64,000 bases of DNA from [Mycobacterium] crassicus (GTDB lineage Bacteria > Actinomycetota > Actinomycetes > Mycobacteriales > Mycobacteriaceae), in the NCBI RefSeq assembly GCF_020181615.1, contig NZ_CP084029.1, positions 451,911 through 515,910 on the forward strand, written 5' to 3'. Below the pieces are notes generated by a model. It made no database searches. It saw nothing but the letters and a program-made list of their open reading frames with translations, and was not told where the DNA came from. Position numbers and translations under genes: made by a program. This document shows, piece by piece, positions 49,609 through 54,530 of this stretch (within the stretch, counting starts at the first letter, position 1; each line of letters starts with the position of its first letter).

Positions 49609-50293
49609 CCGAGGCGATTCTCAGACGTCGCGGCACCGCTCCCTCAGAGCAGGGGGAAGGGTTGCGGGGCCTCAATATCTCGTATGTCGTGGTAATTCGG
49701 GCAGGATCGAGTCGGTCGGGTGCGACAATTCTCATCGCACTGCGAGGCAGTACCGTCGTTATTCCTCCGTGCTGTTGTAAATAATCAAATGGGTTGGCGT
49801 ACAGCATAATTCGATTCGGTCAAGGCCTCTGCGCCGGCGTTCTGCGGCCTCCATGTCCGTGACGTGCGTTACTTTCATTGGCCATCAAGAGTATTCGACA
49901 AAAACCTTCCAGTTCTTACACAGCGAACTTTCGGGCAGAAGATCTAGCTTGATGATGTCGGTCGACGCCATTGTTGGACGGTGCGAAAGATGTTTGTTTC
50001 TAGGAGGTTACGTGATGATCACACGTCCTTGTTGCGACACTTCGCAATTCGGTATGTCGCTGATCCGTGCGTCAACTCCGAGGGCGTCAGAACATGGCGT
50101 CGAGGGCTACCTGCAGCGTCGCATGCATCGCCCCTGGCGTAAGCGCGGTTCCTAGGCCCGTCGGGCTTCGGTAGTCGAACAGTTGAAGGTTCTGGGCCGC
50201 GGTGTTTCCGCGGCGCAGCTGTTCTTTGGGCATCCCGGTGCGGGTGCGAATGATCCAGGCTCAATAACCGACGTCGTAAAAGGTTGGGTAAAA
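49609..50293. other. Long leader region before the PPE-SbtA cluster
   Basis: 685 bp, visibly richer in A and T than flanking core genes. Only one small ORF (50015-50155) can be argued. No PE gene precedes the PPE pair in the first 685 bp, although PPE genes often follow a PE gene. The region likely holds the promoter and a long 5' untranslated leader for the PPE operon; alternative starts at 50183 and 50294 exist for the first PPE frame. Confidence 0.6.
50015..50155 (+). CDS. Candidate small ORF with Cys-Cys motif
   Basis: 46 aa, from ATG 50015 preceded by a consensus TAGGAGGTTACGTG ribosome site. The start is MITRPCCDTSQFG; the C-terminus is basic (MHRPWRKRGS). It is the only well-initiated frame in the leader. 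In mycobacteria short ORFs with consecutive cysteines have been reported as cysteine-responsive attenuators, which this could resemble. It may equally be untranslated. Confidence 0.3.
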   Translation: MITRPCCDTSQFGMSLIRASTPRASEHGVEGYLQRRMHRPWRKRGS

Positions 50294-51556
50294 ATGGATT
50301 TCGGGGCATTGCCGCCGGAGGTGAACTCCGGCCGAATGTATTCAGGTGCCGGCCCGGGGCCGCTGCTGTCCGCGGCCTCTGCCTGGGGTGAACTCGCCGC
50401 CGAGTTGCATTCGGCGGCGGCGGGCTACGGTGCGGCCATATCGGACCTATCCGCCGACTGGCATGGGCCGTCCGCCGAGGTCATGTCGGTGGCGGCCGCG
50501 CCGTACGTCGAATGGATGAGTGGGATCGCCGCCCAGGCCGAGCAGGCGGGCGCGCAGGCGGCCGCGGCCGCTGCTGCCTATGAGTCGGCGTTCGCCGCTA
50601 CCGTTCCGCCGCCGCTGATCGCTGCGAACCGCAGCCTGCTCATGACGTTGATCGCGACGAACGTACTGGGGCTCAACACGCCGGCGATCGCGGCGACTGA
50701 GGCGCATTACGCGGAGATGTGGGCGCAGGATGCCGCAGCCATGTACAGCTACGCCGGGGCCTCGGCGGCGGCCACCCAACTGACGCCGTTCGCCGAACCC
50801 CCGCAGACCGCCAACCAGGCCGGCGCCGCCGATCAGGCGGCCGCGACTGCCCAAGCCACCAGCACCTCGGGAAGTTCCGTTGGACAGCAGATTTCGCAGG
50901 CGCTGACAACGTTGCCGAATGCGCTTCAATCACTGGCGGCCAACCCCGCAGCGGTGTCGTCAGGCTTGCCGGCCGACCTCGCCACCGATCTGGCCAACTG
51001 GAACACGATCATGTCCACCCTGACGGGGGCCTATAGCCCGCTCCTGGGCTGGACGTCTATGCCCGGCGGGCCGTTGCTGTCGTTCGGGCAGATATGGAGT
51101 TGGCCGATCAACGGGATGGGGGTCGCCGCCTACTTGGCCGGACCGAAGGCCATCTCCGGCGCGTTGACACCCCTGTCGTCGATGGCGGGCCAGGGTATTT
51201 CGGCGGCAGGCCTCGCCGGGAGCAAGGTGACGGGGGCGCTCGGCCGTGCGGCGCTGATCGGAGAGCTGTCGGTCCCGACAGCCTGGGCCACTTCTGCGCC
51301 GGCGATCCAAACGATGTCCCTGACGCTGCCATCGGGAGCCGTCGTAATCGCCGGTGAAGACGCATTGTTCAGTGAGATGGCCATGTCCAGCCTGGCGGGA
51401 CGTGCCATGGGGGCCGTCGGGGGCCGTACCGCCGGCGCGACGTTGACCCATGCGGCCGGCAGCAGAGTGGGCGCCAATGTCGTCGGCTCCATTGCCGGTG
51501 AGGCCGATCCCGCAGCGGCCACGATCGTTGTGATTCCGGCGCTCGATGATGAATGA
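50294..51556 (+). CDS. PPE family protein, SVP type (first of pair)
   Basis: 420 aa from ATG 50294 (MDFGALPPEVNSGRMYSGAG). The PPE domain occupies about 1-180 and includes the WHGPSAE tryptophan motif and the YxxxW-like EMWAQDAAAMYSYA segment. The C-terminal half contains GELSVPTAWATSAP, the Gxx-SVPxxW signature of the PPE-SVP subfamily. PPE proteins are exported by ESX-5 and several act as outer-membrane nutrient channels or channel parts. Downstream is a second PPE, then an SbtA-type transporter on the same strand. Confidence 0.93.
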   Translation: MDFGALPPEVNSGRMYSGAGPGPLLSAASAWGELAAELHSAAAGYGAAISDLSADWHGPSAEVMSVAAAPYVEWMSGIAAQAEQAGAQAAAAAAAYESAFAATVPPPLIAANRSLLMTLIATNVLGLNTPAIAATEAHYAEMWAQDAAAMYSYAGASAAATQLTPFAEPPQTANQAGAADQAAATAQATSTSGSSVGQQISQALTTLPNALQSLAANPAAVSSGLPADLATDLANWNTIMSTLTGAYSPLLGWTSMPGGPLLSFGQIWSWPINGMGVAAYLAGPKAISGALTPLSSMAGQGISAAGLAGSKVTGALGRAALIGELSVPTAWATSAPAIQTMSLTLPSGAVVIAGEDALFSEMAMSSLAGRAMGAVGGRTAGATLTHAAGSRVGANVVGSIAGEADPAAATIVVIPALDDE

Positions 51557-51627
51557 CGGTGTGCAGCCAGCTTATAGCCCAACCCACGCAAACGTAGATG
51601 TGCGTCACACCAGAGGAGGGAAACGGA

Positions 51628-52992: not shown

Positions 52993-54186
52993 ATGCAAAT
53001 ACTTTTGGAATTCTGGCATAACTTCACCCATAATCTGTTCAAGCCGTTACTGCTCTTCTTCTACTTCGGATTTTTATTGCCGATCCTGAAGGTGCCCTTC
53101 GAATTTCCGACAGCCGTCTACCATGGACTCACCATGTACCTGCTGCTGGCCATAGGCTGGCACGGCGGCGAAGAGCTCGCTGCAATCAAGATGTCCAGTA
53201 TCGGCGGCATTCTCGGATTCATGCTGATCGGATTCGTTCTGAACTTCATCATCGGCGCATTGGCGTACTTCATCCTGAAGCGCACCACTAAAATGCGAGA
53301 AGTAGACCGAGCGACGGTCGCCGGATATTACGGCTCGGACTCGGCGGGCACGTTTGCCACATGCGTCGGCGTGTTGGCCACCGCGGACATTCTTTTTGAC
53401 TCGTTTATGCCGGTCATGCTGGCAATCATGGAGATTCCCGGTTGCCTGGTCGCGCTACTCCTGGTGGCGCGACTGCGGCGGAGGGGAATGGACTCTGCCG
53501 GCCTGATGCCCGGTGAGATCGGCTATACCGAACCGGTCGGATCGGTGGTTCGGGTCGCACACCAAGGGAGTACGGACACCGGCCGTTCGGTCGCGCTCGA
53601 GGACCTCCCGGAGTTTTTGGGAGCGGAATCCCGAGACGCTCCGGCGCTCGACGGGGAGCCTGCGTTCATCTCCGCGAAGTTGCTCCGTGAAGTCTTTCTC
53701 AATCCCGGACTGTGCCTGCTCATGGGAGGCATCGCGATCGGATTCATCAGTGGGCTGCAGGGGCAGAAGGTTACTGCTGTCGACGACCCGGTTTTCTTGA
53801 CCGCGTTCCAAGGTGCCCTGTGTCTGTTTCTGCTGGAAATGGGGATGACCGCCTCCCGGAAGTTGAAAGACTTGAGAGCGGCGGGTCGCGGCTTCATCCT
53901 TTTCGGGCTGCTGGCGCCGAATCTTTTCGCCACGATCGGTATCGCGGTCGCCCACCTGTATTCCCAGATCACCGGCGTTCATTTTGAGTTGGGAACCTAC
54001 GTGCTCTTCGCGGTCCTCTGCGGCGCGGCATCGTATATCGCCCTTCCGGCGGTTCAGCGGTTGGCTATCCCGGAAGCCAGTCCCAGTCTGCCGTTGGCCG
54101 CCTCGTTGGGTCTGACATTTTCCTACAACGTCACGATCGGCATACCGCTGTACATCGAAGTGGTTCACCTGCTGACGCGGATGTGA
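52993..54186 (+). CDS. SbtA-type sodium-dependent bicarbonate transporter
   Basis: 397 aa. Two homologous membrane halves of about five helices each, separated by a charged loop around residues 160-235 (RRRGMDSAGLMPGEIGYTEP). Family features are GYYGSDSAGTFATCVGVLA, FMPVMLAIMEIPGCLVALLL, FQGALCLFLLEMGMTASRK and the C-terminal IPEASPSLPLAASLGLTFSY with NVTIGIPLYIE. This is the SbtA pattern (PF05982), known best as the high-affinity bicarbonate importer of cyanobacteria. No SbtB partner follows. Position after two PPE genes suggests coupled passage across both membranes. Confidence 0.85.
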   Translation: MQILLEFWHNFTHNLFKPLLLFFYFGFLLPILKVPFEFPTAVYHGLTMYLLLAIGWHGGEELAAIKMSSIGGILGFMLIGFVLNFIIGALAYFILKRTTKMREVDRATVAGYYGSDSAGTFATCVGVLATADILFDSFMPVMLAIMEIPGCLVALLLVARLRRRGMDSAGLMPGEIGYTEPVGSVVRVAHQGSTDTGRSVALEDLPEFLGAESRDAPALDGEPAFISAKLLREVFLNPGLCLLMGGIAIGFISGLQGQKVTAVDDPVFLTAFQGALCLFLLEMGMTASRKLKDLRAAGRGFILFGLLAPNLFATIGIAVAHLYSQITGVHFELGTYVLFAVLCGAASYIALPAVQRLAIPEASPSLPLAASLGLTFSYNVTIGIPLYIEVVHLLTRM

Positions 54187-54197
54187 GGGGGGCGGTG

Positions 54198-54530
54198 ATG
54201 ATGTCGCTGAAAATGATCGTCGCACTGACGAGCCTGGCAATCTCGGTTGTGTGTGCAAGCCCCGCTGGGGCAGAGCCTGATGACGCGAACGATGATGCCG
54301 GTTTCATCGCATCCTTACGGCAGTCGAGCATCACGTTCGCCAGCGAACAACAGGCGATCGTGGCCGCTCGAGCCGTCTGCGGACTGATTAATAATGGAGA
54401 ATCGGGGCTGCAGGTCGTTAAAGAACTGCAGAGTGATAATGCTGCGCTGACGCTGGACGGTGCTGCGCAGTTCGCTGCCATCGCGGCGAACGCTTATTGT
54501 CCCGCGCAATTGAAGACTTCCAAGTCATGA
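54198..54530 (+). CDS. Secreted DUF732 family protein
   Basis: 110 aa. Sec signal peptide (MMSLKMIVALTSLAISVVCA, then SPAGAEPDD). The mature domain has two conserved cysteines (AVCGLINNG and NAYCPAQLK) and the FIASLRQSSITFASEQQAIV helix typical of DUF732, a mycobacterial secreted family. ATG 54198 is preferred for its GAGGGGGG site; a GTG at 54183 overlaps the SbtA stop. It is the last gene of the PPE-PPE-SbtA run. Function unknown; a periplasmic or wall partner of the transporter is possible. Confidence 0.82.
   Translation: MMSLKMIVALTSLAISVVCASPAGAEPDDANDDAGFIASLRQSSITFASEQQAIVAARAVCGLINNGESGLQVVKELQSDNAALTLDGAAQFAAIAANAYCPAQLKTSKS

What the first reader, a model, noticed from the sequence alone, without database searches (positions are those of the whole stretch)
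49609..54530. PPE-PPE-SbtA-DUF732 cluster: a candidate envelope-spanning bicarbonate uptake system
Four genes on one strand lie close together: two SVP-type PPE proteins (71 bp apart), an SbtA-family transporter (48 bp further) and a secreted DUF732 protein (about 11 bp further or overlapping). SbtA is a high-affinity sodium-dependent bicarbonate permease family, seen in the sequence through GSDSAGTFATC, FMPVMLAIMEIPG and IPEASPSLPLAASLG motifs. PPE proteins are known in mycobacteria to give small molecules passage over the outer membrane. Joined in one operon, they suggest an outer-membrane pore plus an inner-membrane importer for bicarbonate or another small anion, with DUF732 as a wall-side accessory. 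I do not know of a description of this pairing.
Basis: partly seen in the sequence, partly recalled or inferred. Interest (0 to 1): 0.85.

Follow-up and report, generated by a model that had tools for sequence, protein, structure and literature searches.

The report
Magnesium-locus PPE cassette with bicarbonate-family transporter
Some mycobacteria carry a four-gene cassette whose outer-envelope-type genes are close relatives of those in a known magnesium-stress gene cluster, but with a bicarbonate-transporter-like gene in place of the usual magnesium-stress gene; this hints at a reusable uptake module, though what it carries is not known.

Summary
The four genes are real and tightly spaced: PPE-SVP, PPE-SVP, Sbt_1 (SbtA family), DUF732. 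The host looks like a Mycolicibacter. The order recurs in 14 distinct cassettes (6 named, all Mycolicibacter; 8 unnamed, the window included), shown at two chromosomal places, and the cassette SbtA is one clade: an inherited unit. It is not general: 74 of 80 named SbtA-family loci have no PPE in the stretch held. New here is the kinship of the cassette. Its PPE-PPE-DUF732 triad belongs to the triads next to mgtC at the Mbox/pe20 magnesium locus: 23 of 24 fetched next-best loci carry MgtC after the triad. In 7 related genomes read far enough, and in the window's own, mgtC has no such triad with DUF732 beside it. Two genomes lack SbtA but keep the triad under purifying selection (loss well supported in one), so the PPEs are not dedicated to SbtA. 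Bicarbonate is unproven: two of four mutagenised HCO3- contacts differ, as in most mycobacterial homologues. Best reading: a small-anion uptake cassette made by giving a PPE-PPE-DUF732 module another inner-membrane partner. Co-transcription, pore function and substrate are untested. New variant of a known kind.

The parts
50294..51556 (+). PPE1 (PPE-SVP); kin of the first PPE of the triads at mgtC
   Evidence: Pfam PPE and PPE-SVP (run on the frame from 50183); ATG kept in the six named relatives; trees
51628..52944 (+). PPE2 (PPE-SVP); kin of the second PPE of the triads at mgtC
   Evidence: Pfam (run on the frame from 51598); C-terminal orthologues in 13 of 297 genomes at 59-100% identity, next best 52%; trees
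52993..54186 (+). SbtA-family (Sbt_1, PF05982) inner-membrane transporter between PPE2 and DUF732
   Evidence: Pfam E 5.2e-95; PDB match to Synechocystis SbtA 7cye E 1.8e-21; cassette clade 99*; residues
54201..54530 (+). DUF732 small protein with a signal-peptide-like start (by eye) and two conserved Cys (alternative starts 54183 GTG, 54198 ATG)
   Evidence: Pfam E 4.2e-17; alignment of 7; tree groups it with the cassette DUF732s (98/89*)
50015..50155 (+). possible upstream small ORF (46 codons) behind a strong Shine-Dalgarno; the SD/start is shared with four close relatives, the peptide mostly is not

Best explanation
The cassette is a member of the PPE-PPE-DUF732 triad family known from the Mbox/pe20-mgtC magnesium locus, standing at another chromosomal place, in which the neighbouring inner-membrane gene is an SbtA-family transporter instead of MgtC. 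Most likely the two PPEs, exported by a type VII system, help a small solute cross the mycomembrane, the secreted DUF732 protein works in the space between, and SbtA brings a small anion over the inner membrane with Na+. The anion is probably a C1-type anion such as bicarbonate or formate; which one is open. Shown: gene order, kinship of the triad, a single cassette SbtA clade, absence of SbtA in two members (one nested, with a remnant), purifying selection. Inferred: direction of the move (from the mgtC locus), co-transcription, export, pore function, coupling, substrate.
For: Order and gaps conserved in 14 distinct cassettes, at two chromosomal places among those compared. Cassette SbtA one clade, 14 of 14 rows (99*). 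Of 24 fetched loci with next-best PPE2 matches, 23 have MgtC after the triad; 11 genomes of similar rank were not fetched. The PPEs of the cassette group with one of the two mgtC triads in the outgroup-rooted tree (PPE1 93, PPE2 98*). Mbox upstream in L180 and L182, not seen in L181. In 7 of 7 related genomes read for 9 kb or more upstream of mgtC, and in the window genome, no DUF732 and no cassette-type triad stands there. dN/dS of SbtA 0.12-0.19 in the window clade. Precedent: PE20-PPE31 needed at low Mg/low pH, and the pe-ppe Mbox leader co-transcribed with mgtC in M. tuberculosis (PMC12810186, passages).
Against: SbtA is absent in L178 and L179 while PPEs and DUF732 stay constrained. 74 of 80 named SbtA-family loci lack PPEs in the stretch held, as does the second SbtA of this genome. 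The published experiments concern PE20-PPE31, not the kin of these PPEs. In M. marinum mgtC is regulated by an element between the PPE genes and mgtC (PMC4278808, passages), so even there PPEs and mgtC need not act as one unit. MgtC may not itself be a transporter (same paper: in S. Typhimurium it inhibits the F1Fo ATP synthase). The grouping with one mgtC triad is weak when PPE1 and PPE2 root each other (40 and 61), and the DUF732 tree does not show it. No PE gene in the cassette, while three mgtC triads have a PE match inside (L182, L238, L255). No expression data; structure tool unavailable.
Confidence: 0.47

Rival explanations
1. SbtA is a passenger. The PPE-PPE-DUF732 triad does its own job (magnesium or another solute) and SbtA was dropped into the operon, sharing only its promoter.
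For: SbtA absent from two members with the triad kept at the same chromosomal place; at most slight relaxation afterwards; G000 has two further triads with no MgtC or SbtA in the stretch read; most SbtA genes stand without PPE.
Against: SbtA kept in 11 of 13 genomes of the genus sample that have the cassette PPE2, across large divergence and two chromosomal places, always between PPE2 and DUF732, under purifying selection.
Confidence: 0.3
2. The cassette stays in ion/pH stress adaptation like its magnesium kin: the triad still handles Mg2+ and SbtA supplies a counter-anion or pH-buffering bicarbonate.
For: Kin triads at the Mbox/mgtC locus. In M. tuberculosis pe20, ppe31 and ppe32 are induced by CO2 independently of pH (PMC11895460, passages).
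Against: No Mbox or other Rfam element at the window cassette or in L178/L179. In the window genome MgtC with an Mbox stays elsewhere.
Confidence: 0.25
3. The SbtA protein carries an anion other than bicarbonate, for example formate or another small carboxylate.
For: Two of the four mutagenised HCO3- contacts differ: Y140 is L in 14 of 14 cassette rows and 95 of 96 other homologues, S327 is A in 14 of 14 and 78 of 96 (T in 18); D325 is Y in all 110. A heterotroph's SbtA relative, SO_3758, was linked to formate tolerance (PMC12093963, abstract and passages).
Against: S114 and S324 are kept in the cassette. HCO3- transporting SbtA-family members are stated to occur in autotrophic Pseudomonadota (PMC12628692, passages); their residues were not compared.
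Confidence: 0.4

Closest known systems
Mbox-pe20/mgtC locus (PE20-PPE31-PPE32-PPE33-Rv1810-MgtC of M. tuberculosis; MMAR_2683-2686 and mgtC of M. marinum)
   Same: PPE-PPE-DUF732 triad of the same PPE groups and order, close to an inner-membrane protein gene
   Different: SbtA, not MgtC; SbtA lies inside the triad (between PPE2 and DUF732), not after it; no Mbox and no PE gene at the cassette; other chromosomal place. That PPE32/PPE33/Rv1810 are the matching genes rests on their position in the locus, not on a sequence comparison with M. tuberculosis
Cyanobacterial SbtA (Synechocystis slr1512, PDB 7CYE)
   Same: Pfam family, full-length match, S114 and S324 kept
   Different: Y140L, S327A, D325Y; far apart in a quick tree with long branches; SbtB was not searched for
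Rv2387-type mycobacterial SbtA-family permease
   Same: Same mycobacterial SbtA group and mostly the same pocket letters
   Different: Stands without PPEs; clusters of a chorismate-binding-enzyme-like ORF and a HemN-like ORF lie beside it in 58 and 53 of 75 loci (named from the letters by eye, Pfam run on one locus, L054). Equation with Rv2387 rests on gene order plus recall

Membership tests
SbtA (Sbt_1, PF05982) | full-length match above the curated cut-off | tested here: met
   318.7 bits against cut-off 27, profile 1-307 of 308
SbtA (functional bicarbonate transporter) | HCO3- contacts S114, Y140, S324, S327 (PMC8352866, whole text) | tested here: not met
   2 of 4 kept: S114, S324; Y140 is L and S327 is A
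SbtA (functional bicarbonate transporter) | Na+-dependent HCO3- uptake | not testable with these tools
   needs an assay
pe20/mgtC-type PPE locus | PPE-PPE-DUF732 triad of the same PPE groups | tested here: met
   same two PPE groups and order; grouping with one mgtC triad 93 and 98* with outgroups, an unrooted split of 100/99* in the joined tree, but 40 and 61 when PPE1 and PPE2 root each other
pe20/mgtC-type PPE locus | MgtC after the triad | tested here: not met
   the only MgtC match of G000 lies at 2269146; the gene after the cassette is a metallo-beta-lactamase-fold gene on the other strand
pe20/mgtC-type PPE locus | Mbox riboswitch leader | tested here: not met
   no Rfam match at E up to 1 in 49400-54700; G000 Mboxes at 538342, 2267244, 4841672
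PPE-SVP type VII substrates | PPE domain and PPE-SVP C-terminus | tested here: met
PPE-SVP type VII substrates | PE gene beside it (usual, not universal) | tested here: not met
   none of the 16 PE matches of G000 lies in the cassette

The most novel reading that the evidence does not exclude
PPE-PPE-DUF732 is a reusable outer-envelope uptake module of mycobacteria that can be combined with different inner-membrane proteins (MgtC for Mg2+ adaptation, SbtA for a small anion), and this cassette is an envelope-spanning C1-anion uptake system of mycobacteria with its outer-membrane part encoded beside it, the first of its kind.
Probability: 0.27. Interest if true: 0.8.

Novelty: new variant of a known kind. 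Interest (0 to 1): 0.52.

Why it matters
How small nutrients cross the mycobacterial outer membrane is a long-standing question, and PPE proteins are leading candidates. Here nature offers a comparison: closely related PPE-PPE-DUF732 triads with MgtC, with SbtA, and with neither (L178, L179). If the triad limits uptake in each setting, PPE pairs are general envelope modules; if not, operon position has been over-read.

Tried and rejected
A general SbtA-PPE partnership was rejected: 6 of 80 named loci have PPEs at SbtA, all six Mycolicibacter. Two of the other 74 loci hold less than 2 kb upstream (L057, L098).

Conservation by mere synteny was rejected: L036-L038 carry the cassette in a different context.

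An Mbox or other known RNA element at the cassette: none. Homology of the upstream small ORF to the Mbox-associated uORF: the peptides look unlike each other by eye (no alignment was run).

Neighbours of the stand-alone SbtA as a clue to substrate: ORFs like a chorismate-binding enzyme and HemN in many mycobacteria; in Mycolicibacter, MFS, CbiX, a carboxyltransferase-domain gene and oxoprolinase-like genes. Too mixed to name a substrate. The clusters include spurious overlapping ORFs.

Relaxed selection after the loss of SbtA: at most slight for PPE2 and DUF732 in L178 (dS of DUF732 near saturation), none for PPE1 in L178, none in L179.

Structure prediction: not available, so no fold search was run.

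Rows dropped: one search removed identical SbtA rows (128 to 114; loci L001-L032 left out as short copies); one search took its outgroup PPEs from L180-L182 and L197-L208 only, with score and length filters; one search used 50 of the 52 PPE matches; one search left out L034, L036, L038 (same genomes as L183, L185, L186), the L199 triad (score rule) and L245 (cut at a contig end); searches dropped L180_t3616, L180_t6695 and L256_t5184. In one search the L188 PPE1 start was set too far in. The AU test was chosen after nested placement had been seen. The search scored at most 8 candidates per genome.
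Full report
Observation. The four genes are present as described: PPE1 50294-51556, PPE2 51628-52944, SbtA 52993-54186, DUF732 about 54201-54530, all on the + strand, with gaps of 71, 48 and about 11-14 nt. The window lies at 451911-515910 of a 4.87 Mb genome in one contig. The closest named flanks are Mycolicibacter (strain MYC340 at 86-94%, M. sinensis strains at about 80-88%), so the host is most likely a Mycolicibacter; its species was not determined.

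Distribution. Sbt_1 matches occur in 114 of 297 genomes sampled in the genus group. A scan of named genomes kept the best 80 loci. Six of the 80, all Mycolicibacter (L033-L038), have PPE-PPE upstream and DUF732 downstream; 74 have no PPE in the stretch held. The window genome has a second SbtA at 334146-335291 with no PPE in the 19 kb read. The C-terminal part of PPE2 has orthologues at 59-100% identity in 13 of 297 genomes; the next best is 52%. Comparing places and reading the fetched loci, 11 of these 13 have SbtA next to it; the two without are G086 (L178) and G181 (L179).

The cassette is a unit. In L036-L038 only the cassette (and PPE-like stretches) aligns to the window and the flanks differ, while L033-L035 share the window's flanks. 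L188-L191 share flanks with L036-L038; L187, L192 and L193 were not compared. Gaps are narrow: PPE-PPE 66-82 nt, PPE-SbtA 39-55 nt in the SbtA-bearing loci. The cassette SbtA proteins form one clade, 14 of 14 rows (99*, quick tree). SbtA is under purifying selection, dN/dS 0.12-0.19 in the window clade.

Kinship of the triad. The two PPEs belong to two separate PPE groups, each with relatives in PPE-PPE-DUF732 arrays. Of 24 fetched loci with next-best PPE2 matches, one per genome (L180-L182, L197, L237-L256), 23 carry MgtC after the array; the exception is L197. Eleven genomes of similar rank were not fetched. The script resolved the full order triad-MgtC in 22 of the 23; L245 is cut at a contig end. 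An Mbox lies upstream in L180 and L182 and was not seen in L181, whose stretch may begin too late.

How firm the tree is. Three groups are each well supported: the cassette, and two kinds of mgtC triad, here A and B. With many other PPEs as outgroup, the cassette groups with A (PPE1 93, PPE2 98*). The joined PPE1+PPE2+DUF732 tree of 48 rows has a split of 100/99* between B with L197 and L198 on one side and A with the cassette on the other, but it is unrooted. Single trees drawn at the midpoint put the cassette with A for PPE1 and with B for PPE2. When PPE1 and PPE2 root each other, A+cassette appears in both halves, but with weak support (40 and 61). In the DUF732 tree the mgtC rows fall on one side (92/77) and the cassette on the other. 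So membership of the triad family is firm; that the cassette came from triad A of the mgtC locus is likely, not proven.

mgtC in the related genomes. In 12 cassette-bearing genomes the best MgtC match is directly preceded by another PPE in 11; the 12th, L260, is cut off. Of these 11, seven were read for 9 kb or more upstream (L269, L271, L272, L274-L277): none has DUF732 there or PPEs of the cassette type; L269 and L271, like the window genome (L202), have a PE gene and more distant relatives of the two PPEs upstream. Four were read for less than 3 kb upstream (L270, L273, L278, L279). Four of the genomes have a second, weaker MgtC-family match; one of them (L283) also follows a PPE.

Loss of SbtA. 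L178 shares the window's chromosomal place and L179 that of L036, but both go straight from PPE2 to DUF732. L178 lies inside the SbtA-bearing group; holding the SbtA-bearing rows together as one clade is rejected (p-AU 1.7e-9). Between PPE2 and DUF732, L178 keeps a 32-nt stretch like the window's SbtA 3' end (24 of 32 identical; 0 of 300 mononucleotide shuffles as high). L179 shows only a short purine-rich stretch like the SbtA ribosome-binding region (p 0.00-0.03 against six of seven relatives of its own clade, 0.10 against the seventh, uncorrected), which is weak. So loss is well supported for L178 and possible for L179. PPE1, PPE2 and DUF732 stay constrained in both; PPE2 and DUF732 are slightly less so in L178.

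DUF732 and PPEs. In the window genome 9 of 21 DUF732 matches lie within 3 kb of a PPE match, against a mean of 0.89 in 2000 random placements, maximum 6 (50 of 52 PPE matches used; distances are between domain matches; random placement ignores gene clustering). Without the cassette it is 8 of 20.

Substrate. The paper on cyanobacterial SbtA (PMC8352866, read whole) docks HCO3- to S114, Y140, S324 and S327 and reports that changing any of them to Ala lowers transport to about 10-40%. In the cassette S114 and S324 are kept; Y140 is L and S327 is A in 14 of 14. Of 96 other homologues (mostly mycobacterial), 95 have L at 140 and 78 have A at 327 (18 T). An Acaryochloris plasmid homologue keeps all four; Azospirillum and Arthrobacter homologues have L and A. 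The cassette protein is therefore not special in its pocket among mycobacterial homologues, and the bicarbonate label is by family only. A heterotroph relative was linked to formate tolerance (PMC12093963, abstract and passages).

Literature. The pe20 locus order, co-transcription of the pe-ppe Mbox leader with mgtC, and the need for PE20-PPE31 at low Mg/low pH are from PMC12810186 (abstract and passages; one section). In M. marinum PPE31 and mgtC are about 30-fold induced by low Mg, and mgtC is driven by an element between the PPE genes and mgtC (PMC4278808, passages). CO2 induces pe20, ppe31 and ppe32 independently of pH (PMC11895460, passages). PPE64 as a mycomembrane channel and PPE51 in glycerol/glucose uptake were seen only in the search listing. 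Rv2387 is described as a conserved membrane permease and studied as a host effector (PMC9504853, passages); its equation with the stand-alone SbtA rests on gene order plus recall. Searches that could have shown a PPE-SbtA pairing in print listed no title or abstract start that does; one search found 0 papers. The listed papers were not all opened, searches list 20 of 186 and 20 of 54 papers, and subscription journals are mostly not held.

Verdict. A real, conserved, operon-like cassette, and a new variant of the known PPE-PPE-DUF732-mgtC arrangement. The kinship is strong; the mechanism (joint envelope uptake of a small anion) is a reasonable but untested inference, weakened by members that lack SbtA and keep the PPEs.

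Noticed in passing
window 50003-50155: Strong Shine-Dalgarno and start shared with L033, L034, L035 and L178 about 290 nt upstream of PPE1, but the encoded peptide is mostly not conserved; a shared C-terminal tail appears in the window, L034 and (from another start, read by eye) L035.
   Followed up: partly
L043 and L095 (Isosphaeraceae MAGs): Planctomycete assemblies carry SbtA proteins 65% identical to the window's, drawn inside the mycobacterial ones (support 87): gene transfer or bin contamination.
   Followed up: no
L050, L059, L071, L074 and others: Many mycobacteria have two SbtA genes in tandem; most of the second copies form their own clade.
   Followed up: no
L194 (G022 1818000-1836000): An SbtA copy with an in-frame TAG, one of four SbtA matches in that genome.
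   Followed up: no
L198 and L199 (G000 4778000-4792000, 2520000-2534000): Two more PPE-PPE-DUF732 triads in the window genome with no MgtC or SbtA in the stretch read; neighbours include rhomboid, IMS polymerase and a tRNA synthetase.
   Followed up: partly
L283 (G150 2472000-2486000): A second, more distant MgtC-family gene also directly follows a PPE gene.
   Followed up: no
window 46331-47827 and 47495-48664: Genes that look like a cation/proton antiporter and a TrkA-type regulator lie upstream in the chromosomal flank, not in the cassette (recognised by eye, not searched).
   Followed up: no
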